From: Streptomyces sp. 11x1
Lineage (GTDB): Bacteria > Actinomycetota > Actinomycetes > Streptomycetales > Streptomycetaceae
Direction: 5' to 3'
Assembly (NCBI RefSeq): GCF_032598905.1
Contig: NZ_CP122458.1
Coordinates: 2,728,001 to 2,792,000, forward strand
Length of the DNA: 64,000 nucleotides
Below the pieces are notes generated by a model. That model was not told where the DNA came from. It saw nothing but the letters and a program-made list of their open reading frames with translations, and did no database searches. The translations under genes and the position numbers were made by a program. Within the stretch, counting starts at the first letter, position 1, and the number at the start of each line of letters is the position of its first letter. Shown here in pieces: positions 13,503 to 24,766 of this stretch.

Positions 13503-15512
13503 TCATGCCTCCGCCTTCACCGCTTCTTCCCGCTGCTCCGCCTCTTCCCGGTCCTTCGCGGCGGTGTCGATCGCGGCGAGCGACCTGCGGACCTGGTTAC
13601 GGTCCGTCGTGTACCAGAAGTCGGGCAGTGAGGCCTTCAGATAGCTGCCGTACCGCGCGGTCGCGAGCCGTTGGTCCAGTACAGCGACCACACCACGGTC
13701 CCCCTGCGCCCTTACGAGACGGCCGGCGCCTTGCGCCATCAGCAGAGCCGCGTGTGTGGCGGCGACCGCCATGAAGCCGTTGCCGCCCGCCTCCTCGACG
13801 GCCTTCTGGCGAGCGCTCATCAGCGGGTCGTCGGGGCGAGGGAACGGGATCTTGTCCATCACGACCAGCTGGCAGCTGGGACCAGGCACGTCCACGCCCT
13901 GCCAGAGCGAGAGGGTGCCGAAGAGACAGGTCTTCGGGTCGGCCGCGAAGCCCTTGATCAGCTCCCCGAGCGTCTCCTCCCCCTGCAGCAGGATCGGGTA
14001 CTCGGGGATGCGGACGCGCAGCTCCTCCGCCGCCAGCTGGGCGGCCCGCATCGACGAGAACAGTCCGAGCGTCCGGCCGCCGGCCGCCTGGATCAGTTCC
14101 ATGAGCTCGTCCAGCATGTCCGCCCGGTCGCCGTCCCGCGCGGGACGTGAAAGATGCTTGGCGACGTAGAGGATGCCCTGCCTCGGGTAGTCGAACGGCG
14201 ATCCGACGTCCACGCCCTTCCACTGTGGAAGGGCGTCGCCCTGGGCGCCCTCGGGGGCCAGTCCCAGCGAAGCCCCGACCCCGTTGAAATCGCCGCCCAG
14301 CTTGAGTGTGGCGGAGGTCAGGGTGACGGAGCGGTCCGCGAAGAGCTTCTCCCGGAGCAGACCCGAGACGGACATCGGGGCGACGCGCAGGGACGCGCCG
14401 AAACGGTCATGGCGTTCGTACCAGACGACGTCCCACTCCGAGCCGTTGCTGATCCGCTCCGCCACGTCGTGCACGCTCTCCACGGCTGCCAGAGCCTGCT
14501 TGCGGACGGCGTCCTCGTCCTGGACGGACTTGTCGCGGGTGCTGCCGATTGCCGAGATCACCGCGCGAGCGGCATCGCGCAGCGCCATCAGGACGTACGC
14601 CAGATCCTCTGGGATCTCTTCCAGCCGGCCCGGAAGAGCAAGCTCCATGATCCGCTCGAACCCCTCGGCGGCGGTCTGGAGCTGGTCCGCGACCTTCTCG
14701 TTCACGAGCTTCGCCGCCCGTTTCACGGCGCGGTTGACCTGGCCCGGAGTGAGTTCGCCGGTCGCCACGCCGGTCACCCGGGAGACGAGTTCGTGCGCCT
14801 CGTCCACGATCAACACCTCGTGCTGCGGGAGAACCGGAGCACCCTCGATGGCGTCGATCGCGAGCAGCGCGTGGTTGGTGACGACGACCTCGGAGAGCTT
14901 GGCCCGCTCCCGGGCCATCTCGGCGAAGCACTCGGCGCCGTACGCGCACTTCGTGGCGCCCAGGCATTCTCTGGACGACACCGAGATCTGTGCCCAGGCG
15001 CGGTCGGACACTCCTGGGGTGAGGTCGTCCCGGTCGCCGGTCTCGGTCTCCTGCGACCAGTCCCGCAGCCTCAGCAGGTCCTGGCCCAGCTTGCTGCTGG
15101 GGGCGGCCGCCTCGAACTGGTCGAAGAGGCCCTCCTCCTCGTCCTGCGGTACGCCTTCGTTCAGCCGGTGCAGGCACAGATAGTTCGACCGGCCCTTGAG
15201 CATCGCGAACTCCGGGCGGCGGCGCAGGAGGGGGTGCAGCGCGTCGACCGTTCTCGGCAGGTCCCGCTCCACGAGCTGCCGCTGGAGGGCGAGGGTCGCC
15301 GTGGCGACGACGACACGCTCTCCCTGGGCGAGCGCGGGCACCAGATACCCGAGGGACTTGCCGGTGCCGGTGCCTGCTTGGACCAGCAGATGGGAGCCGT
15401 CGTCGATCGCCTCCGCGACGGCTTCGGCCATGGTCACCTGGCCGGGGCGCTCCGTGCCGCCGACAGCGGTGACGGCTGCGTGCAGGAGTTCGTGGAGTGA
15501 GGGCTTCGTCAT
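13503..15512 (-). CDS. dinG: DinG-type iron-sulfur DNA helicase
   Basis: A 669-residue superfamily 2 helicase of the XPD/DinG group that unwinds DNA with 5'-3' polarity. The Walker A motif GTGTGKS is at residues 47-53 and the DEAH box is in VLIVDEAHEL. Between them are cysteines (NYLCLHRL, RECLGATKCAYGAECF) expected to hold a 4Fe-4S cluster. The C-terminal helicase half includes LFGTLSLWQGVDVPG and AQGAGRLVRAQGDRG. It probably acts on R-loops, D-loops or other structures during repair. ATG at 15512. The promoter at 15522-15544 matches the RecA-NDp type, pointing to DNA-damage induction. Symbol given by family resemblance. Confidence 0.88.
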   Translation of the reverse strand: MTKPSLHELLHAAVTAVGGTERPGQVTMAEAVAEAIDDGSHLLVQAGTGTGKSLGYLVPALAQGERVVVATATLALQRQLVERDLPRTVDALHPLLRRRPEFAMLKGRSNYLCLHRLNEGVPQDEEEGLFDQFEAAAPSSKLGQDLLRLRDWSQETETGDRDDLTPGVSDRAWAQISVSSRECLGATKCAYGAECFAEMARERAKLSEVVVTNHALLAIDAIEGAPVLPQHEVLIVDEAHELVSRVTGVATGELTPGQVNRAVKRAAKLVNEKVADQLQTAAEGFERIMELALPGRLEEIPEDLAYVLMALRDAARAVISAIGSTRDKSVQDEDAVRKQALAAVESVHDVAERISNGSEWDVVWYERHDRFGASLRVAPMSVSGLLREKLFADRSVTLTSATLKLGGDFNGVGASLGLAPEGAQGDALPQWKGVDVGSPFDYPRQGILYVAKHLSRPARDGDRADMLDELMELIQAAGGRTLGLFSSMRAAQLAAEELRVRIPEYPILLQGEETLGELIKGFAADPKTCLFGTLSLWQGVDVPGPSCQLVVMDKIPFPRPDDPLMSARQKAVEEAGGNGFMAVAATHAALLMAQGAGRLVRAQGDRGVVAVLDQRLATARYGSYLKASLPDFWYTTDRNQVRRSLAAIDTAAKDREEAEQREEAVKAEA

Positions 15513-15521
15513 AGCGCGACC

Positions 15522-15544
15522 ACCCTACGGGCCACCACTGACAA
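15522..15544 (-). promoter_or_regulatory. RecA-NDp-type damage promoter of the DinG-like gene
   Basis: On the minus strand: TTGTCAGTGGT, 6 nt, TAGGGT. This is the actinobacterial RecA-NDp pattern (TTGTCAGTGGC-N6-TAGggT). The -10 ends only 9 nt before the ATG, so transcription would start within a few nucleotides of the start codon (leaderless or nearly so). The same motif precedes recA and lhr. Confidence 0.85.
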
Positions 15545-15739
15545 ACGGGTGATCGCGGCGGACGCGTGGGGCCTGGGAGGCGGGATCAAGGCGTCTTCTC
15601 TTCGACTGGACGGGACGGTCTCGGAGCCCGGACATCGAGTCGAGACGAGTCTGGGCGGGGCAGGGCGATCGGACCGGGAACCGGAGCGGCTCGTGCGGTG
15701 TACCAGAAATGACGGCGTCACAGCAGATCCACATCGGAT

Positions 15740-16534
15740 CTACATCAGATCGCGCAGCAGCCGGTCCCTGCACATGAGGGCGGCCCGCTTGTCGGGCAGG
15801 TCGACCTCGGTGGCGTACCGGAAGCCCGCGCTGAGGAAAGCGGAGACGGAGGGGAAGTTGCGCAGGTCGGGTTCCGCGACGACGCGGGCACAGGAAGGTC
15901 TTCTGTCGAGGACGAGATCGGCGACGGCGCGGAGCAGGGTGGAGCCGAGACCGCGCCCACGCTGGGCCACTGGTCCGATGAGCAGATGGATCCCGGTGTC
16001 GTGGGGACGGGCGGGGTAATGGCGGGCGAGGGGGTCGAGATCCGCCCGGTAGATCTCCCAATAGCTCACCGGGGCTCCGTTCAGCAGTCCGAGACAGGGC
16101 ATGCTGCGGCCGTCCCCGTCGAGCTGGGCACGTAGGTGGTTCGCGGTCACGTCCTCGGCTCCGCCGAGCTTCCAGTAGGAGTCCACGGCCGAGTCGTTCA
16201 TCCAGCGGGAGATCAGCGGGACGTCCCGTCCGAGGCGCACGGGGACGAGGTGCAGCGTGCCTGCCGGGGTGGCGACCGGCCCCCAGTCCGCGAGGTGGTC
16301 GAGCAACTCGCCGTCGGCCGGGCGTCCCCTCTGCCCCGCGTCGGTACCGCCGTCGCACGGGTCGGTGTCCTCGGAGTCGAAGGTGTCCTCGGATCCGGTG
16401 TCCTCGGACAGGAGCGCGAGGAAGTCGTCGGTCAGGCGCAGTTCGAGGGTGTCCTCGTTCCCGGGGGCCGAGGCGGTGCCGGTGTCGGTGTCGGTGTCGG
16501 TGGTCGCGTGGGTGCTCGCGTCGGTGGGAGGCAC
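15740..16534 (-). CDS. IucB/RhbD-like siderophore acyltransferase (GNAT)
   Basis: A 264-residue protein. The first ~85 residues are acidic and repetitive, with a short Asp-Thr repeat encoded by GGTGTC units. The rest is a GNAT acyltransferase of the MbtK/IucB type; the family-typical segment is SYWEIYRADLDPLARHY followed by GIHLLIGPVAQRGRGLG, the acetyl-CoA-binding loop. In hydroxamate siderophore pathways such enzymes acylate a (hydroxylated) amine. GTG start at 16534, set by GAGAGGAG 7 nt upstream. Last gene of a three-gene leftward set with the NIS synthetase and aminotransferase. No amine hydroxylase gene is nearby, so the acyl acceptor is unknown. Confidence 0.82.
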   Translation of the reverse strand: MPPTDASTHATTDTDTDTGTASAPGNEDTLELRLTDDFLALLSEDTGSEDTFDSEDTDPCDGGTDAGQRGRPADGELLDHLADWGPVATPAGTLHLVPVRLGRDVPLISRWMNDSAVDSYWKLGGAEDVTANHLRAQLDGDGRSMPCLGLLNGAPVSYWEIYRADLDPLARHYPARPHDTGIHLLIGPVAQRGRGLGSTLLRAVADLVLDRRPSCARVVAEPDLRNFPSVSAFLSAGFRYATEVDLPDKRAALMCRDRLLRDLM

Positions 16535-16642
16535 GGCGACGCTCCTCTCAGGAGATCGGGTGGGTCATGTTCCTCGGAACTGAAGGGAGTCGGACTACAC
16601 GGACGAGTGGGCTGGACCGCAGTACGGAGGAGGAGCGGCCGG

Positions 16643-18979
16643 TCATGGAAGGAGGGGGTTGGTGAGAGTGACGTAGACGGACTGGGTGTCGACAGGACCG
16701 ACGAGTTCATCGAGGCCGTGGAGGCGGGTCAGCAGGTTGGCCTTGCAGCGCAGGACGGGTGAGTCGAGCAGTCGGGCGGGCAGGGTGGTGTTCAGCCGGG
16801 CGGGACCGGTGGCCACATCCGCGAGGAAGCGGCGGAAGGCGGCGAGCAGGAGCCGCTCGTCGCCGAGGCGCTGGGAGCCGAAAGCACCGATGAGACCGAA
16901 CACGTTGTTGATGCCGAGGTAGTAGGCGAATCGTTCGTCGGTGACCTCGTCGGAGACGAACGTGTCGCTGCGCTCGCCGATGCCGGGCAGCCGGGATCGG
17001 AGGTCCGCACGGCGGGACTCACGGAAGTAGTAGCCCTGGTTGTCGCGGAACCTTCCGCCGATGGGCCAGCCGTCGGGGTCCAGTAGGACGAGCGTGTTCT
17101 GCTGGTGCGCTTCGAGGGCGATCCCGGCCTCACTGTCGAGCCACAGCACGGGCCGCACGACGTGTTCCAGGTAGCGCAGGAACCACTCGACGGCTACGGC
17201 TCCCCGGGAACGCCCGGTCCGCCCGGCGAGACGGTTGACGACCTCCTCAAGCCGCGACCGCATGAGGAGGCGCTCGTCGGGGTGGCCTTCGCCATCGGGG
17301 TACGGCCGGGGTGCCACGAGGCCCGCGACGCAGGACGCGTCGTCCGCCGGGCCGAACGGGTTGTGCCGGATGACCACGTCCAGGCCCACCAGGGGGTCGC
17401 CGTCCGGTGCGGTGCCCGCCAGCCAGGCCGGGTCGCGGACGATGTCGAACCCGGGATGGGCCGCCTGCCACCGCTCGGCCAGGCCGGTGCGCAGCAAGCG
17501 GTGCACCTCGACACCGCGATGGAGTTCCTTGCGGAGGTTCTCACGGCGGGAGTTGGTGATGCGCAGGCCCAGAGAGAGCTTCAGCATCGCGGGGGCACCG
17601 GTGCGGTGAACGGTGCGGACGGAGGAGGTGGGGTGCCAGGGAGCGCCGTGCGGGCCCAGGTCGCGCAGCAGGCCGGCGTCGAGCAGCGCGGCGACGGCCG
17701 GGCGGTGGCGGACCTCGCGGAGCTGCCAGGGGTGCAGGGGTAGGGCGGTGAAGCCGTCGGGGAGTGGCAGGTCCGGCCCGGCCAGCCGCGCGGTCAGACG
17801 GCCGGCGGGGACGACACGGCCGCGCTCGGTCCACGCCGAGTCGGTCGACAGGACGGAGGGTGCGACCGCCATCCAGTGCAGGGGGAAGGAGCCACGCAGT
17901 TCAGGTGAGTACAGGCGCGCTTCGGCCTCGGAAAGCCCTTCCCTGCTCTTCGGGGTGGGGTGGAGGGGATGGCCGAGGAGGAGGGCCTGCTCGGCGGCCA
18001 GGAACCGGGCGGGGTCGTCGGCGGGTTGAGCACGGCGCTCGGTGATGAACAGAGCGACCTGGCGGGCGGAGTCGGCGACACTCCCCACCAGGTCCAGTGG
18101 GTCGCGCTCGATGTGCGGGGTGGGCTGGATGTGCGGGGTGGGCGCGGCCCTGGGTCGGGGTCGGGGCCGGGGGGTTGTTCCCCGCGTGCCTCCTGCGGTC
18201 GCCTCGCGGGTCAGCAGGACCGCGAGCGTGACCGCGTCGACAGGGGGTGCGGTGTCGGGGGCGCCGGCGAGGTGGGGGCGGCCGAAGCGGTGCCAGCCGG
18301 TGGGAGACCAGTAGCGCACCGGCGCGAGGAGGGTCGTGCCGGTGGCGGGGAGAGGGATGTGGAGGACGCCGCCGTGGTCTTGGGGAGGGGTGAGGTCGTG
18401 TTCGCGTACCCAGCAGCGCAAGAGGTTCTCGGCCGCTGCCGCCTGTGCGGCGGTGTGCGGGTCGGGGTGGTGCAGGAGGTCGGCGTCGGTGCCGAGGTCG
18501 GGGTCGGGCGAGGTCGTAAGGGCCCGGCCGCTGTCCGTGTCCTGGCGTGGGGCCGGGCAGCCGCGCTCGTGGCTCGGCCCCGTCGGGTGGTCGGGAAGCA
18601 CGGGTCGGCGAGGGACTGGCTGGGCGGGGCACGGTACCTGCGCGGGCACGCCGGGGTGGGGGCCAGCTTGGTGCCGCGGTGGGTCCAGCAGGCTGGCCCC
18701 CGGTTCCGTCAGGCAGCTGTCCCGCTCGACTTGACTGGGCCCAAGTTCACCCGGCTCGACCTGGCTGGGCCCGTGCTGCCTCGGCTCGGCCTGGGTGGGC
18801 CCGGGCTCACTCGGCTCGACGTGCGCGGGTCGCCGCTGTCCCGGCTCGGTCTGGCCGGGCGATGGTTCGGAGCGGCCTGGCAGCGGTGGTTCAGCGCTCA
18901 AGGGGCCGGAGGGCTGAGGGACGTGGGCTTCCGGGGAGCGGTGGTGGGTGCGGGCCCCGGGGGCGGGCGGCGGGTTCAC
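16643..18979 (-). CDS. IucA/IucC-family (NRPS-independent) siderophore synthetase
   Basis: NIS synthetases adenylate citrate or similar carboxylates and join them to amines or alcohols. The frame has 778 codons, longer than the usual ~600, because the first ~170 residues are Pro/Glu/Gln-rich low complexity encoded partly by 30-bp DNA repeats. The catalytic part begins near residue 175. It has the ATP-binding motif HPTPKSREG (340-348, Lys344), then KLSLGLRITNSRREN and the carboxylate-site segment EAHQQNTLVLL. The GTG start at 18979 has a weak AGGA ahead; a start after the repeat region is possible. Middle gene of the aminotransferase-synthetase-acyltransferase set. Substrates are not deducible. 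Confidence 0.85.
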   Translation of the reverse strand: MNPPPAPGARTHHRSPEAHVPQPSGPLSAEPPLPGRSEPSPGQTEPGQRRPAHVEPSEPGPTQAEPRQHGPSQVEPGELGPSQVERDSCLTEPGASLLDPPRHQAGPHPGVPAQVPCPAQPVPRRPVLPDHPTGPSHERGCPAPRQDTDSGRALTTSPDPDLGTDADLLHHPDPHTAAQAAAAENLLRCWVREHDLTPPQDHGGVLHIPLPATGTTLLAPVRYWSPTGWHRFGRPHLAGAPDTAPPVDAVTLAVLLTREATAGGTRGTTPRPRPRPRAAPTPHIQPTPHIERDPLDLVGSVADSARQVALFITERRAQPADDPARFLAAEQALLLGHPLHPTPKSREGLSEAEARLYSPELRGSFPLHWMAVAPSVLSTDSAWTERGRVVPAGRLTARLAGPDLPLPDGFTALPLHPWQLREVRHRPAVAALLDAGLLRDLGPHGAPWHPTSSVRTVHRTGAPAMLKLSLGLRITNSRRENLRKELHRGVEVHRLLRTGLAERWQAAHPGFDIVRDPAWLAGTAPDGDPLVGLDVVIRHNPFGPADDASCVAGLVAPRPYPDGEGHPDERLLMRSRLEEVVNRLAGRTGRSRGAVAVEWFLRYLEHVVRPVLWLDSEAGIALEAHQQNTLVLLDPDGWPIGGRFRDNQGYYFRESRRADLRSRLPGIGERSDTFVSDEVTDERFAYYLGINNVFGLIGAFGSQRLGDERLLLAAFRRFLADVATGPARLNTTLPARLLDSPVLRCKANLLTRLHGLDELVGPVDTQSVYVTLTNPLLP
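18721..18870. repeat. Five imperfect 30-bp tandem repeats in the NIS synthetase N-terminus
   Basis: Units start at 18721, 18751, 18781, 18811 and 18841, each opening with a variant of YCSGCTCGRC and with a GGGC core. They encode degenerate decapeptides such as EPGPTQAEPR and HGPSQVEPGE at about residues 37-87 of the synthetase. The unit is a multiple of three, so copy changes would keep the frame. Confidence 0.85.
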
Positions 18980-19147
18980 GGCGGTTCCTGGGGTTGCTCG
19001 TGCGGGAGGGCAGTCGCGGGTTCGTACCGGCGAGCGGAGGTGAGGCGGGTGTTGGAGGGGAGCAGGCGTGGGGAGCGGTGGTGGGGCCGTGCCGTGGGTG
19101 GGTGGCTGGTTGGGGCGTGGCGGGGTGGGCGGTCGTGGGGGTGGTGT

Positions 19148-20650
19148 TCAGCCGCCCGGCGTGCGGGCGGGGACTCCGGCTCGCACGAGGGCCGGGTGCA
19201 CCGGGAATCGTGTCGCTGCGGTGGCCGCCACCGAGGCGATCGCGTCCGTCAGCCGGTCGAGCACTGCGTTCGTCTGATCGTCGGTGATCGTGAGGGGCGG
19301 CAGGAGGCGGACGACGCCGGCATGGCGGCCGCCGAGATCGACGATCAGCCCACGGCGGAGGCACTCACGCTGTACGGCGGTGGCGAGGGAAGGGGCGGGT
19401 GGGCGCGGACCGGTCTCGTCGGGTCCAGGGGGCGCGTCCGGGGTGACCATCTCGATGCCGATCATCAGCCCCCGTCCTCGTACGTCACCGACACAGGCGA
19501 ACCGCTCGGTGAGGGGGCGGAGTTGAGCGAGGATGCGGGCGCCCAGGGTGGCGGCGCGTTCAGCGAGGCCGTTCTCGCGGACGTGAGCGAGGGTGGCGGC
19601 GCCCGCGGCCATGGCGAGCTGGTTGCCGCGGAAGGGGGTGGCATGGGTGCCGGGCCGCCAGACGTCGAGGTCGTCGCGGTGGACCACGACGGCCAGCGGC
19701 AGGCTGCCGCCGATGGCCTGGGAGAGGACCATGACGTCGGGGACGACGCCGCTGTGCTCGACGGCCCAGAAGCGGCCGGTGCGGCCCACACCCGTCCGGA
19801 CCTCGTCGGCGATCAGCGGGATCGAGCGGGCGGCGGTGATCTCCCGCATGCGGCGCAGCCAGCCGTCCGGGGCGGGGAGGACTCCTCCCTCGCCCTGGAC
19901 GGGTTCGAGGAGCATGCCGGCGGGCAGCGGTGCTCCGGGATCGGCGTCGTCGAGGACGGACTCGGTCCAGCGGGCGGCGAGTTCGGCGCCGCGTTCGCCG
20001 CCGATACCGAACGGGCAGCGGTAGTCCTGCGGGTAGGGCAGGCGTGGCGCCCGGATGTCGCGGGCGGTCGCGGGTGCTTCGAGGGCCCCGGTGTTCAGGT
20101 CGGCGTGGGCACCGGTGAAGGCGAGCAGGCCGGAGCGTCCGGTGGCGGCCCGGACCAGTCTGCAGGCGACCTCGACCGCGTCCGTGCCGGAGGGGCCGCA
20201 GAACCGGACGCGGGCACGGTCCGCGAGCTCTGGTGGCAGGGTGCGGAGCAGTTCGGTGGTGAAGGCGTCCTTGGCGGGGGTGGCCAGGTCGAGGACGTGC
20301 AGCTGAGCACCCGAGGCGACCGCCTTGCGGATGGCTTCGAGGACGACCGGGTGGTTGTGGCCGAGGGCGAGGGTTCCGGCGCCGGACAGACAGTCGAGGT
20401 AGCGGCGACCGTCGGCGTCCTCGACGGTCAGCCCGCGCGCGCGTACGGGAACGACGGGCAGGGAGCGCGCGTAGGTGCGCGCCGCCGAGTCTCGGGCGGC
20501 CTGCGGCCACGGAATCCTTCCGTGCCCCGACCGCACGGCACGTGCCCCGTCGTGCTCCCGTCGTGGGCGGGCCGGTTCGCCCGCGGGTCTCGGACCCGCT
20601 CGCTCGGGGTCACGTCCCACCGGCGCCACCGCGGACTCGGTCACCGCCAC
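19148..20650 (-). CDS. Class III aminotransferase-like protein (diaminobutyrate-AT type) lacking the PLP lysine
   Basis: About 500 residues of the fold used by L-2,4-diaminobutyrate:2-oxoglutarate aminotransferases such as RhbA, Dat and PvdH. Family features are clear: LGHNHPVV near the N-terminus, the IADEVRTGVGRTGRFW block with the ring-binding Asp, and FRGNQLAMAAGA. However, the Schiff-base lysine of the usual LSKAIGG is Gln (LSQAIGG; CAG codon at 19718-19720, residue 311), and the phosphate-contacting Thr of the usual GTFRGNQ is Pro (TPFRGNQ, residue 339). Ordinary transamination is therefore doubtful. The start is taken as GTG at 20650, about 9 nt after GGGAGGA; an in-frame GTG at 20668 overlaps that site. 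First gene of the siderophore-like set. Confidence 0.82.
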   Translation of the reverse strand: MAVTESAVAPVGRDPERAGPRPAGEPARPRREHDGARAVRSGHGRIPWPQAARDSAARTYARSLPVVPVRARGLTVEDADGRRYLDCLSGAGTLALGHNHPVVLEAIRKAVASGAQLHVLDLATPAKDAFTTELLRTLPPELADRARVRFCGPSGTDAVEVACRLVRAATGRSGLLAFTGAHADLNTGALEAPATARDIRAPRLPYPQDYRCPFGIGGERGAELAARWTESVLDDADPGAPLPAGMLLEPVQGEGGVLPAPDGWLRRMREITAARSIPLIADEVRTGVGRTGRFWAVEHSGVVPDVMVLSQAIGGSLPLAVVVHRDDLDVWRPGTHATPFRGNQLAMAAGAATLAHVRENGLAERAATLGARILAQLRPLTERFACVGDVRGRGLMIGIEMVTPDAPPGPDETGPRPPAPSLATAVQRECLRRGLIVDLGGRHAGVVRLLPPLTITDDQTNAVLDRLTDAIASVAATAATRFPVHPALVRAGVPARTPGG

Positions 20651-20896
20651 TGCTGCACTTCCTCCCACGGTTCATCAGAGGCGAGTCGGCAGGGGTCACC
20701 GAACACCGGCGGGTCCCCCGCACGTACCAACGACGAGACCGGTACGGGGAAGCGGGTCGGACGAAAATATGTGCCGCGGCGGATGCTTGGCCGGTTCGGT
20801 CCGGTCCGCTCGGGTGCCGCCGACCGGACCTTCGGCCCGTGTCCCTACGGTCGGGCCCGGACGGCCGGAGCGGTGCGGCCGGATTCCGGTGGTGGG

Positions 20897-21715
20897 TTAC
20901 CGCTTCAGTCCGACGCCGCCGAAGTGGGTGACGTCGATGTCCTCGTCGTCGGCTCCGGGGCGCCAGCGGGAACAGGAGACGATGCCCGGGGGAAGGAGTT
21001 CGACGTCGCCGAAGAGGCGTACGAGGTCGGCATGGCTGCGCAGCGTCATCGCCGCCGAAGCCTGTCCGTTTCAGTACTCCACGGCCTGCGTCATCGCTTC
21101 GCCGTCGACCTCGGTGGTGGGATGGGAGATCACGAGGTGGCTGCCGGGCGGTACGGCAGCCACCAACCGCCGTACCACAGCGGCCGCTTCGTCGGTGTCC
21201 ATGCCGAAGTTCAGGACGCCCAGCATGGTGATCGCGATCGGCTGCCGGAAGTCCAGGGTGCCCGCGGCGCCCCTCAGGATCGTGTCGGGATCGTGGACGT
21301 CGGCGTCTATGTAGTCGGTGGCACCCTCGGCGGTGCTGTTGAGCAGTGCGTGGGCGTGCGCGAGGACGATGGGGTCGTTGTCGACGTAGACGATCTTGCA
21401 GGAGGGGTTGACGCGCTGGGCCACCTCGTGGGTGTTGTCCGCGGTGGGCAGGCCGGTGCCGATGTCCAGGAACTGCCGGACACCGGCTTCCTCGGTCAGA
21501 TAGCGGACGGTGCGGGCCAGGAAGCGGCGGTCGGCGACGGCGGAGCGGGGAAGCTCGGGTACGAAACCGAGGATCTGGTCGCCGACCTGCTCGTCGACCT
21601 CGTAGTGGTCCTTGCCGCCCAACCAGTAGTTCCAGATCCGCGCGGAGTGAGAGACGTTCGTCCGGAGCTGGTTGACGCGCGCGACACCCGCGTTGCTGTG
21701 GGAGTGGTCGGACAT
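20897..21715 (-). pseudogene. SAM-dependent methyltransferase (DUF574 type) with in-frame stop
   Basis: A Streptomyces-type methyltransferase of the DUF574/Methyltransf_19 group. The family signature IWNYWLGGKDHYEVDEQ and the SAM loop FLDIGTGLP are intact. The reading frame stops at TGA (21071-21073), after AMTQAVEY, where the family normally has Trp. In the same frame the sequence continues for 57 good codons (LRSHADLVRLFGD ... SRWRPGADDEDID ... FGGVGLKR) to a TAA at 20897-20899. A single TGG-to-TGA change explains everything. The ATG start at 21715 has AGGAG 9 nt ahead. The truncated product would be 214 of 272 residues. Either a young pseudogene, a read-through case or a base error. Confidence 0.85.
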
Positions 21716-21779
21716 ACGGTGCGGGCTCCTTCGGAACATGAGCGGCGAGTTCTTCCCCGACCTAGATTCACTCGCTCAA

Positions 21780-21878
21780 CTACCGCAAGGGAAGAGGCAT
21801 TTGGTCAGGGCGGTTGGTCGACTGCGCCTGGTTGATCGCCTGGTCGGGGGGCTCGTAGCCAAACCGTTGCCGTTCCAT
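21780..21878 (-). CDS. Possible 32-residue small protein upstream of methyltransferase
   Basis: A short frame, ATG at 21878 with GGGGGA 6 nt upstream, encoding a hydrophilic Gln/Pro/Arg-rich peptide that starts MERQRFGYEPPDQ. It lies 64 bp before the methyltransferase on the same strand. The ribosome site is good, but third-position GC is only moderate and I recognise no family. Could be a real small protein, a leader, or chance. The rest of the 21716-22118 gap shows nothing further. Confidence 0.35.
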   Translation of the reverse strand: MERQRFGYEPPDQAINQAQSTNRPDQMPLPLR

Positions 21879-22118
21879 CGGATGTCCCCCACACCGACCG
21901 CATAGTGTGTGGTGCCGTTCCGAAGGACGCGGGTCGGTGGATCTCACCGAGCCACGCGGACGAGGACTACGTACGTAGTAGGTACGAAGAAACAAGTGTG
22001 CGGAGCCGCGCGAAATGTCGTGTCGGCCACGTACAAGAAGGCGGCCGGCGCGCGGAGGAGTCGTGCGCTGTCCGTCTCGGCACCACAGATTCTCAACGCC
22101 CCAGGGGGAGTTCAGACC

Positions 22119-23351
22119 ATGCGACCCATACGACCGCTCTTCGCCGCCCGTCGTGGGAGGAGCACGCGCCGCAGAACCTCCCCCGTTCTGGCCGTGGTCG
22201 GCCTCGCCACGGTTATGTCGTTGACGGCCACCGCATGCGGCTCGGGGGACACCACGGCGAACGCCGAGGCGTCGGCCTCCGCGCAGGACAGCGGAAGCGG
22301 GGGCGACGGCAAGATCCGGATCCCGGACGACATCAAGGACAAGCTGAAGGAACACGGGATCGACCTCGACAAGTGGCGGGGCGGGGCGTGGAAGAACTGG
22401 GACAAGGACGACTGGCTGCGCGAGGCCGAGGACTACGTCAACCCGATCATCAAGGACCTGTGGGACCCGGACCGGATGCGGGACGCCGAGGAGCCGGAGA
22501 AGGAGGTCGACGAGGGCGACATCACCGGTGACCAGGGTGTGACCGACCCGACGCCGGAGTCCGTCGACGCGAAGGCGGTGGCGGCTCAGTACCACGCGAA
22601 CGTGCCCGAGGCGGGCAAGGTCTTCTTCGACGCGCCCGAGGGCACGATGGTCTGCTCGGCGACGGTGGTGCAGGACCCGGCCAACCCGGGCAAGTCCAAC
22701 CTCGTGTGGACGGCCGGTCACTGTGTGCACGCCGGTAAGGCGGGCGGCTGGTACCGGAACATCGCCTTCGTTCCCTCGTACAACGACAGTGCCATGGCGG
22801 CCTCGGAACTGAAGACCGCGACGAAGGAGGAGGTCGCTCCGTTCGGCGTCTGGTGGGGCGACTGGGCGCAGACCTCGGACCAGTGGATCGAGCAGGGCGG
22901 TCAGACGGGCGGTGACGGGGCGCCGTACGACTTCGCGGTGATCCATGTGACGCCGGAGGAGGGCAGCGGGGGCAAGTCGCTGGAGGAGATGGTCGGTTCG
23001 GCGCTGCCGGTGGACTTCGACGCGCCTGCCGTGCCGCAGGTGCAGAGCATCACCGCGACCGGCTACCCGGCGGGGGCTCCGTACGACGGCGAGACGATGT
23101 ACCAGTGCACGGACAAGCCGGGGCGGCTCTCGCTCGTCGAGGCCGACCCGACGATGTACCGCATCGGCTGCTCGATGACCGGCGGCTCGTCCGGTGGGGG
23201 CTGGGTGGCGACTGGTTCGGACGGTGAGCCCGCGCTGGTGTCCAACACCTCCATCGGTCCGGTGAGCGCCGGCTGGCTGGCGGGGCCGCGGTTGGGCAAG
23301 GAGGCCGAGGGCGTGTACAAGGCGGTGAGCGGCAAGTTCGCTTCGCAGTGA
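22119..23351 (+). CDS. Lipoprotein trypsin-like serine protease
   Basis: 410 residues, exported and lipid-anchored. The N-terminus has a basic, twin-arginine-containing stretch, then a hydrophobic segment ending in the lipobox-like TATAC-GSG. Next comes a conserved helical propeptide-like domain (DKLKEHGIDLDKWRGGAW ... NPIIKDLWDPDRMR), then a chymotrypsin-fold domain with the triad: His in WTAGHCVH, Asp in YDFAVIHV, Ser in GGSSGGGW. The active-site Ser sits in a wider glycine-rich loop than the classic GDSGGP. Start ATG at 22119, GGGGGAG 8 nt ahead. A paralogue follows immediately in tandem. Substrate unknown; extracytoplasmic. Confidence 0.88.
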   Translation: MRPIRPLFAARRGRSTRRRTSPVLAVVGLATVMSLTATACGSGDTTANAEASASAQDSGSGGDGKIRIPDDIKDKLKEHGIDLDKWRGGAWKNWDKDDWLREAEDYVNPIIKDLWDPDRMRDAEEPEKEVDEGDITGDQGVTDPTPESVDAKAVAAQYHANVPEAGKVFFDAPEGTMVCSATVVQDPANPGKSNLVWTAGHCVHAGKAGGWYRNIAFVPSYNDSAMAASELKTATKEEVAPFGVWWGDWAQTSDQWIEQGGQTGGDGAPYDFAVIHVTPEEGSGGKSLEEMVGSALPVDFDAPAVPQVQSITATGYPAGAPYDGETMYQCTDKPGRLSLVEADPTMYRIGCSMTGGSSGGGWVATGSDGEPALVSNTSIGPVSAGWLAGPRLGKEAEGVYKAVSGKFASQ

Positions 23352-23583: not shown

Positions 23584-24766
23584 ATGCGTTTCTCATCTGG
23601 GCGGTACCACCTGCTCGCCGCCACCGGTCTCGTCGCGGCTCTGGCGCTGGCCTCGACCGCCTGTGGGTCGGGCGAGGGCGGCGCGGACGACAAACCCGGC
23701 GCCGCCGCGTCCCGCACCGCCGACAGGGACGGTGACGGTGTCCCCGACGTCCTCGCCGACAAGCTCGCGGAGCACGGTGTGGATGTCGACGGCTGGAAGG
23801 GCGGGGGCTGGAAGGACTGGGGCCGGGACAAGTGGCTCGGTGAGGCACAGGACTTCCTCAATCCCGTGATCGAGGACCTCTGGGACGCGGAGCGGATGCG
23901 CGAGGCCGGGGATCCGGGGAAGACCGTCGCGGCGCGGGACGCCTCCGCCGAAAGAGGGCGTCAGCGATCCGGTCCCGGCGCCCGTCGAGGCCAGGGCGGA
24001 GAAGACGCCGTACCACGAGCACGCCGGTCCGGTCGGGAAGATCTTCTTCGACTCCCCCGAGGGCGCGATGGTCTGTTCGGGGACGGTCGTCTCGGATGTG
24101 AACCATCCCGGCAAATCCAACCTCGTGTGGACCGCCGGTCACTGTGTCCACGCCGGGAGCGGGGGCGGCTGGTACCGGAACATCGTCTTCGTCCCGGCCT
24201 ACATCGACCTCGGCAGGTCCGAGGAGGAGCTGGCCGGGGGCGCGGCCGCCGAGGAGATCACCCCGTTCGGACAGTGGTGGGCGGACTGGGCCGCGACCTC
24301 GGACGAGTGGATCGCGGGCGGGTCCGAGGAAGGGGGTGCCGGTGCCCCGTACGACTACGCGGTGCTGCATGTGCGGCCGGAGGCGGGCGGCACGTCCTTG
24401 GAGGAGACGGTCGGGGCGGCCCTGGATGTGGACTTCTCCGCGCCGTCCGCGTCCGAGGCCGCGACAGTGGGCGCCTGGGGCTACCCGGCCGCACCGCCGT
24501 ACAACGGTCTGACCATGTTCCGGTGCGTCGACAGGCCTGGACGGTTGTCCCTGGATCCGTCGCTGCCGACGATGTACCGGATCGGCTGCACCATGACCGG
24601 GGGTTCGTCCGGCGGCGGCTGGTTCCGGATGGTCGGTGGCGAGCCCCGGCTCGTGTCGAACACGTCGATCGGTCCGTCCGACAACACCTGGCTCGCGGGA
24701 CCTCAACTGGGCGAGGGGTCACGGACGTTGTACGACGAGATGAGTGACACGTACGGCGGCCGGTGA
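23584..24766 (+). pseudogene. Paralogous lipoprotein serine protease broken by a +1 frameshift
   Basis: A second copy of the preceding protease: lipobox TACGSG, the same propeptide-like segment (DKLAEHGVDVDGWKGGGW ... NPVIEDLWDAERMR), and a complete protease domain with WTAGHCVH, YDYAVLHV and GGSSGGGW. The N-terminal part is in one frame, the protease domain in another. Removing one A from the AAA at 23951-23953 restores a smooth frame (DASAEEGVSDP) that aligns with the first copy. No stop separates the parts, so the shifted frame makes a long nonsense tail. Start ATG 23584. Either a recent pseudogene or a base-calling insertion. Confidence 0.87.

What the first reader, a model, noticed from the sequence alone, without database searches (positions are those of the whole stretch)
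19637..19720. Siderophore-type aminotransferase with its PLP lysine replaced by Gln and a phosphate-contact Thr replaced by Pro
The diaminobutyrate-aminotransferase-like protein reads LSQAIGG where the family has LSKAIGG (catalytic Schiff-base Lys), and TPFRGNQ where the family has GTFRGNQ. The codons are clean (CAG and CCC) in an intact 500-codon frame. Two active-site losses in an otherwise well-kept protein suggest a re-purposed, non-catalytic or differently acting fold, or an early stage of decay. If it still works, the siderophore-like cluster cannot rely on ordinary transamination.
Basis: partly seen in the sequence, partly recalled or inferred. Interest (0 to 1): 0.78.

Follow-up and report, generated by a model that had tools for sequence, protein, structure and literature searches.

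The report
Lysine-less siderophore aminotransferase kept by selection
In one branch of Streptomyces, a protein annotated as a transaminase in a siderophore-type gene cluster has lost the one lysine that its chemistry needs, yet the gene is conserved about as strictly as in relatives that kept the lysine, so it likely does a different, non-transaminase job.

Summary
In detail: the codon at 19718-19720 (minus strand) is CAG (Gln317) where 126 of 126 compared Lys-type relatives have Lys, and 345 is Pro. It is neither a strain quirk nor a likely sequencing error: eight sequences carry Gln317, and the seven of them placed in a 68-row tree form one clade (support 100/100). All eight also carry S160, H188, a changed H189 and a changed Q291. 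Position 345 is not diagnostic. One clade member (P0005) has no lysine at all, so another lysine as PLP anchor is unlikely. A codon model gives omega 0.264 on the stem where the lysine was lost, but 0.053 inside the clade against 0.044 in Lys-bearing relatives (no significant difference; two clade members with DNA). That fits re-purposing better than decay. Elsewhere in Streptomyces the same lysine was lost again (six state changes on the tree), mostly with looser constraint, and 11 of 17 fetched loci keep synthetase and acetyltransferase with no aminotransferase detected. The catalytic step therefore looks dispensable; a Lys-bearing EctB elsewhere in the genome could supply diaminobutyrate. 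Best reading: a selected pseudoenzyme. Its actual role is inferred and untested. No structure prediction could be run.

The parts
19148..20668 (-). Aminotransferase-fold gene (class III, diaminobutyrate transaminase family), 506 aa, lysine-less active site
   Evidence: PF00202, 257 bits; TIGR00709 429.1 bits, cut-off 401.6
19718..19720 (-). Codon 317, CAG = Gln in place of the PLP Schiff-base Lys
19634..19636 (-). Codon 345, CCC = Pro in place of the phosphate-contact Thr; variable in the family
19796..19798 (-). Codon 291, CGG = Arg in place of the conserved Gln next to PLP
   Evidence: equated with Gln274 of YgjG in PMC4244111
20102..20107 (-). Codons 188-189, His-Ala in place of the Tyr-His motif (ring-stacking position)
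   Evidence: 188 equated with Phe180 of YgjG
20189..20191 (-). Codon 160, TCC = Ser in place of Ala in the phosphate-binding GPAGT loop
16643..18979 (-). NIS siderophore synthetase (IucA_IucC + FhuF domains), same strand, downstream; true start uncertain
   Evidence: omega 0.081 against the same gene in L048
15740..16534 (-). GNAT acetyltransferase (Acetyltransf_8), last gene of the presumed operon
21071..21739 (-). SAM methyltransferase gene (PF04672) upstream of the aminotransferase; found only at loci of the Gln clade among the loci held; shorter in the window because of a stop codon where L048 and L051 read on

Best explanation
The protein is a diaminobutyrate-aminotransferase homologue whose PLP-anchoring lysine is replaced by glutamine throughout one Streptomyces clade and which purifying selection still conserves, so it is likely a pseudoenzyme that would act as a non-catalytic partner (structural or ligand-sensing) of the neighbouring siderophore synthetase rather than as a transaminase. 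Shown by computation: the replacement, its fixation in one clade, the companion changes around the PLP site, a burst of amino-acid change on the stem branch, restored constraint inside the clade, and no lysine shared by all members. Inferred: absence of transaminase activity. Inferred and untested: the partner role and any residual ligand. Asp288, the residue that would hold the pyridine nitrogen, is kept in every lysine-less locus examined that reaches it, so non-covalent binding of a cofactor-like ligand is possible. Diaminobutyrate for the cluster would come from EctB, encoded elsewhere in the genome.
For: Gln317 in 8 of 8 clade rows against Lys in 126 of 126 Lys-type rows. The seven clade rows in the 68-row tree form one clade, support 100/100. 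Codon branch model, 11 taxa (2 Gln), 423 codons: omega 0.044 background, 0.264 stem, 0.053 inside the clade; stem versus one ratio 2dlnL 29.1; extra ratio inside the clade 2dlnL 0.65. Window versus L048: omega 0.057, LRT against omega = 1 is 210, 73% of differences at third codon positions; 18 Lys-type pairs gave omega 0.025-0.179. For window versus L048 the synthetase has omega 0.081 and the acetyltransferase 0.078, so this gene is as constrained as its neighbours over that distance. P0005 has no Lys in 462 aa; the window protein has only K115 and K133, neither shared by all clade members. Asp288 is kept in 11 of 11 lysine-less loci that reach it. EctB at G000:C1:8387692-8388924, 674 bits, cut-off 552, open frame, with its lysine motif SKSISG.
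Against: No experiment or structure. The nearest pair (window versus L051) has 22 differences, only 45% at third positions, omega 0.22, higher than the synthetase (0.035), acetyltransferase (0.145) and DinG (0.006) of the same pair; L051 also has frameshifts in this gene and in the synthetase, possibly assembly errors. This could mean recent relaxation. In 11 of 17 fetched synthetase-bearing loci no aminotransferase was detected, so the synthetase does not generally need it. No true fusion with the synthetase in 156 loci (some are repeat fetches of one genome); the single apparent one (L112) runs through a stretch of N. Only two clade members had usable DNA for the branch test, and its topology was set by me from the tree.
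Confidence: 0.55

Rival explanations
1. Decay: the transaminase became dispensable because EctB makes diaminobutyrate, and the gene is an early pseudogene whose active site goes first.
For: Six state changes Lys to non-Lys on the tree, to Q, R, E, G, A; 11 of 17 fetched synthetase-bearing loci have no detectable aminotransferase and others have in-frame deletions of active-site loops; five other lysine-less pairs are looser, omega 0.105-0.334; window versus L051 omega 0.22.
Against: Inside the Gln clade omega is 0.053 against 0.044 in Lys-bearing relatives, with omega = 1 rejected for window versus L048. Even the other lysine-less genes show no stop inside the aligned core and frame-keeping gaps.
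Confidence: 0.25
2. Altered catalysis: PMP or PLP is held non-covalently and His188, Arg291 or another residue does acid-base chemistry, as His does in ColD/E1 sugar 3-dehydratases.
For: Asp288, Glu255 and Arg454 kept; His at 188 and 330 and Arg at 291 in the clade. ColD, E1 and SpnQ are aminotransferase relatives that work with His in place of Lys (PMC8987622, passages).
Against: The replacing residue is Gln, not His, and the ring-stacking Tyr and the neighbouring His are lost too, so PLP binding itself should be weak. His188 and His330 also occur in 11 and 6 of 126 Lys-type rows, so they are not special to the clade. No substrate can be named.
Confidence: 0.12
3. The frame is kept only for operon expression: translation through the gene prevents polarity on the synthetase, and the protein itself does nothing.
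For: Same-strand order in the presumed operon; in 53 of 156 loci the first possible synthetase start lies within 20 nt of, or before, the aminotransferase stop; frame-keeping deletions in eroded copies.
Against: It predicts omega near 1, which is not seen. The eroded gene also keeps its frame in L185 and L190, where the synthetase is mostly or wholly gone, though that loss could be recent.
Confidence: 0.06
4. It stays an ordinary transaminase, with another lysine or a catalytic paralogue supplying the anchor.
For: Above the TIGR00709 cut-off.
Against: P0005 has no lysine and no lysine is shared by all clade members. The own genome has a single copy at E 1e-100, so there is no close Lys-bearing partner for an LCB1/LCB2-like pair.
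Confidence: 0.02

Closest known systems
Diaminobutyrate--2-oxoglutarate transaminase family (TIGR00709), class III aminotransferases
   Same: Whole-length homology above the TIGR00709 cut-off, next to an NIS synthetase, Asp288, Glu255 and Arg454 kept
   Different: Schiff-base Lys, ring-stacking Tyr, following His and the Gln next to PLP replaced as a set; scores below the cut-offs of the narrower PRK06938 and PRK06931 models
Sugar 3-dehydratases ColD / E1 / SpnQ
   Same: Aminotransferase relatives that lost the Lys and kept a function (PMC8987622, passages)
   Different: They have His at that place and belong to the sugar aminotransferase group, not class III (group assignment partly recalled)
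SPTLC1/LCB1 subunit of serine palmitoyltransferase
   Same: Lacks the PLP Lys and is kept as a partner subunit (PMC3794620, passages)
   Different: It pairs with a Lys-bearing homologue; no close paralogue was found in this genome
EctB of ectoine synthesis
   Same: Same reaction class by family name; the best solved-structure matches include diaminobutyrate transaminases 6rl5 and 9s1q
   Different: The window protein scores 294 bits against the EctB cut-off of 552; a separate EctB with its lysine is present

Membership tests
Diaminobutyrate transaminase family (TIGR00709) | Family HMM score above curated cut-off | tested here: met
   429.1 bits, cut-off 401.6
Diaminobutyrate transaminase family (TIGR00709) | Schiff-base lysine in LSKAIGG | tested here: not met
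   Gln in 8 of 8 clade rows
Diaminobutyrate transaminase family (TIGR00709) | Remaining PLP-site residues as named for class III enzyme YgjG (PMC4244111) | tested here: not met
   Positions equated by motif, not by structure: kept Gly161, Thr162, Glu255, Asp288, Val290, Arg454; replaced 188, 291, 317, 345 in the window
Diaminobutyrate transaminase family (TIGR00709) | Transaminase activity with PLP | not testable with these tools
   needs purified protein
Pseudoenzyme (catalytic motif lost, protein kept by selection) | Loss of an essential catalytic residue with no substitute lysine | tested here: met
Pseudoenzyme (catalytic motif lost, protein kept by selection) | Continued purifying selection after the loss | tested here: met
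   omega 0.053 inside the clade, from two members with DNA; window versus L051 is looser, 0.22
ColD/E1-type lysine-less PMP enzymes | His in place of the Lys | tested here: not met
   Gln317
LCB1-type non-catalytic subunit of a heterodimer | Close Lys-bearing paralogue in the same genome | tested here: not met
   one match at E 1e-100 in G000; 17 class III matches in all, none of the others that close
EctB (TIGR02407) | HMM score above 552.2 bits | tested here: not met
   294.4 bits

The most novel reading that the evidence does not exclude
A family of class III pseudo-aminotransferases in which a whole Streptomyces clade swapped the PLP lysine and its surroundings for a new conserved pocket (S160, H188, Q317, mostly A189 and R291) and put the fold to a new selected use in siderophore biosynthesis, in a gene family that loses the same lysine again and again.
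Probability: 0.45. Interest if true: 0.72.

Novelty: new variant of a known kind. Interest (0 to 1): 0.58.

Why it matters
The three clade members that carry a source name (P0003-P0005) are called diaminobutyrate transaminases, and pathway predictions built on that would assume a reaction that this protein likely cannot do. If it is a selected pseudoenzyme, the locus gives a natural series (Lys-bearing, lysine-less but constrained, eroded, absent) at one syntenic place in one genus, which makes the question 'what does an enzyme fold do once its chemistry is gone?' directly testable. It also suggests that the synthetase and acetyltransferase of this widespread cluster do not depend on a dedicated transaminase.

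Tried and rejected
Sequencing or assembly error: rejected, because eight sequences from several sources carry Gln317. Strain-specific loss: rejected by the clade. Thr345Pro as a second decisive loss: rejected, because 345 also varies among Lys-bearing rows. Natural fusion with the synthetase: one apparent case (L112) runs through N, so none is real. Sigma-70 promoter or terminator-like sites in 15500-22200: none found, 0.2 and 1.2 expected by chance. PADLOC: no hit. Antisense coding as the source of constraint: a 1291-aa + strand ORF overlaps the gene, but differences fall mainly at the gene's third positions, which are that ORF's first positions, so it does not explain the pattern.

Analyses dropped: IQ-TREE codon runs yielded no omega to my script. 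Some star-tree fits look unconverged (for example the three-member Gln set), so one search replaces that table. The first NG86 estimate ignores base composition; its residue column was mis-indexed and not used. The pocket enrichment test (5 of 11 conserved pocket sites changed versus 36 of 245 others, Fisher p 0.018) uses a partly recalled, after-the-fact site list and is only suggestive. The list of matches was cut by the tool, so no rate of Lys loss is given. In one search row L037 (R) and the gap in L112 were artefacts of my trimming: both have Lys. Of the 32 synthetase-bearing genomes without a good aminotransferase match, 14 were not looked at.

Full report
What is there. The gene at 19148-20668 (minus strand) is an open frame of 506 codons, a class III aminotransferase by Pfam (PF00202) and a diaminobutyrate--2-oxoglutarate transaminase family member by TIGR00709 (429.1 bits, cut-off 401.6). 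It is followed on the same strand by an IucA/IucC-type NIS siderophore synthetase (16643-18979) and a GNAT acetyltransferase (15740-16534). The codon at 19718-19720 reads CAG, Gln317, and 19634-19636 reads CCC, Pro345. The window lies in a genome of 10.67 Mb in 2 contigs, at C1:2728001-2792000, whose close relatives are Streptomyces. I did not test that the window gene is its orthologue.

Is it a clade or a strain? Among the best 120 database relatives, P0001 to P0005 carry LSQAIGG. In the 252-row alignment, position 317 is Lys in 241, Gln in 7, Arg in 3 (L057 and P0037, S. adelaidensis, and L037, an artefact) and a gap in 1 (L112, an artefact; both artefact rows have Lys). Two named loci carry Gln: L048, S. 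caniscabiei NE06-02D, and L051, Streptomyces sp. MNU76. In an alignment of 8 Gln rows (window, L048, L051, P0001-P0005; P0003 and L048 are nearly the same protein) and 126 Lys-type rows (12 loci and 114 database proteins; the Arg row P0037 was left out), Lys317 and His189 are each 126/126 in the latter and absent from the former. The Gln rows also share S160 and H188 (8/8), A189 (7, Thr in one) and R291 (7, Gly in one). Ser160 is in none of the 126, His188 in 11 and Arg291 in 1. Position 345 is P 4, T 3, A 1 in the Gln rows and T 112, S 5, A 4, P 4, I 1 in the Lys-type rows. A careful tree of 68 rows with the pocket columns masked puts the seven Gln rows included in it into one clade with support 100/100; the window's neighbours are P0001 and then P0005.

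What the changed positions do. In the class III enzyme YgjG (PMC4244111, passages), Lys300 forms the Schiff base, Gly150, Thr151 and Thr332* of the other subunit hold the phosphate, Asp271 the pyridine nitrogen, Phe180 and Val273 sandwich the ring, and Glu243, Gln274 and Arg426 are strictly conserved. By motif alignment these are 317, 161, 162, 345, 288, 188, 290, 255, 291 and 454 here. The window has replaced 317, 188, 291 and 345 and kept the other six. This equation of positions is mine, by motif and spacing, not by a structure.

No substitute lysine. The window protein has two lysines, K115 and K133. P0004 has one, and P0005 (Streptomyces sp. MB09-02B) has none in 462 residues. No lysine is common to all members, so another lysine as anchor is unlikely for the clade as a whole.

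Decay or re-use? A codon model (GY94, F3x4, my own implementation) on 11 taxa, two of them Gln, and 423 codons gave omega 0.044 for Lys-bearing branches, 0.264 for the stem of the Gln clade and 0.053 inside the clade. Allowing the stem its own omega improves the fit by 2dlnL 29.1; allowing the clade its own omega as well adds only 0.65. Window versus L048: differences at codon positions 1, 2, 3 are 22, 14, 95, omega 0.057, omega = 1 rejected with 2dlnL 210; 18 Lys-type pairs gave omega 0.025 to 0.179. The same pair gives omega 0.081 for the synthetase, 0.078 for the acetyltransferase and 0.011 for the DinG-like neighbour. So after a burst of change the gene is about as constrained as its operon partners. 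Against this, window versus L051 has few differences (5, 7, 10) with omega 0.22, above the synthetase (0.035), acetyltransferase (0.145) and DinG (0.006) of that pair, and L051 carries frameshifts in this gene and in the synthetase. Its record title suggests a polished long-read assembly, so error is possible.

The wider family. At one place that is syntenic in most loci compared (S1-type protease, aminotransferase, synthetase, acetyltransferase, DinG-like helicase) other Streptomyces lost the same lysine: L181 (Gln), L057 and L187 (Arg), L185, L188 and L197 (Glu), L186 and L189 (Gly), L190 (Ala). The 68-row tree, which left out L188, L203 and L051, needs 6 Lys/non-Lys changes, at least 5 of them forced by well-supported branches. 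In these copies the aligned core has no stop (L057 has one at residue 491, in the tail) and gaps keep the frame. Constraint is mostly looser: omega 0.105 to 0.334 for five lysine-less pairs outside the Gln clade; against their Lys-bearing neighbours L181 gave 0.108, L057 0.104 and L187 0.037. In the same sample of 199 genomes the aminotransferase was found in 160 (E 1e-100) and the synthetase in 189 (E 1e-60). By comparing the two lists by hand, 32 genomes have the synthetase without a good aminotransferase match. I fetched 17 of these whose place was listed (L188/G196 had been fetched before; 14 were not looked at): 11 show no aminotransferase match at E 1e-4, with synthetase and acetyltransferase in place, and 6 show an eroded one. 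The cluster therefore does not generally need this transaminase. The own genome has an EctB gene (674 bits, cut-off 552) with its lysine motif. EctB makes diaminobutyrate in ectoine synthesis (PMC5924519, passages) and may supply the precursor (inference).

How it most likely works. The data fit an enzyme fold released from catalysis and then re-fixed for another purpose. The partner role for the synthetase is the simplest guess for a constrained non-catalytic gene at the head of this gene set, but nothing here shows contact: there is no true fusion in 156 loci, and the synthetase survives without it elsewhere. Asp288, Glu289 and Thr292 are kept in 11 of 11 lysine-less loci that reach them, so a cofactor-like ligand bound without a Schiff base remains possible. 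Precedents for lysine-less relatives with a function are ColD/E1/SpnQ (His in place of Lys; PMC8987622, passages) and the LCB1 subunit of serine palmitoyltransferase (PMC3794620, passages).

Novelty. The listed results show no paper, by title and abstract start, on a lysine-less class III aminotransferase or on the function of this cluster; several of these lists were capped (15 of 2844, 12 of 390, 10 of 38). A pseudoenzyme review holds none of the words aminotransferase, PLP, pyridoxal or transaminase in its main text (PMC10211241). The library holds open-licence papers only, so this is weak evidence. I file it as a new variant of a known kind: a pseudoenzyme, in a family where I know of none.

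Limits. No structure prediction ran, no biochemistry, two DNA members for the key test, and a truncated list so that no frequency of loss is given.

Noticed in passing
window 21071-21739 (-): A SAM methyltransferase gene (PF04672) sits between the aminotransferase and the S1-type protease; among the loci held it was found only at loci of the Gln clade (window genome, S. caniscabiei loci, L051). In the window it ends early at a stop codon where L048 has a full-length 280-residue frame.
   Followed up: partly
window 23584-24766 (+): A second protease-like gene follows the first (21909-23351); its frame appears split in the window (ORFs 23584-24747 and 24068-24766 in different frames), while L048 has a single-frame match to the first protease at the corresponding place.
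   Followed up: no
L199, L200, L202: Eroded aminotransferases that keep Lys317 but have lost all or part of the Tyr-His-Gly loop: active-site erosion does not always begin with the lysine.
   Followed up: partly
L185 and L190: Loci where the synthetase is mostly (L185) or wholly (L190, acetyltransferase too) gone but the lysine-less aminotransferase frame is still open.
   Followed up: no
L051: Frameshifts in the aminotransferase and several in the synthetase of Streptomyces sp. MNU76; assembly error or decay not resolved.
   Followed up: no
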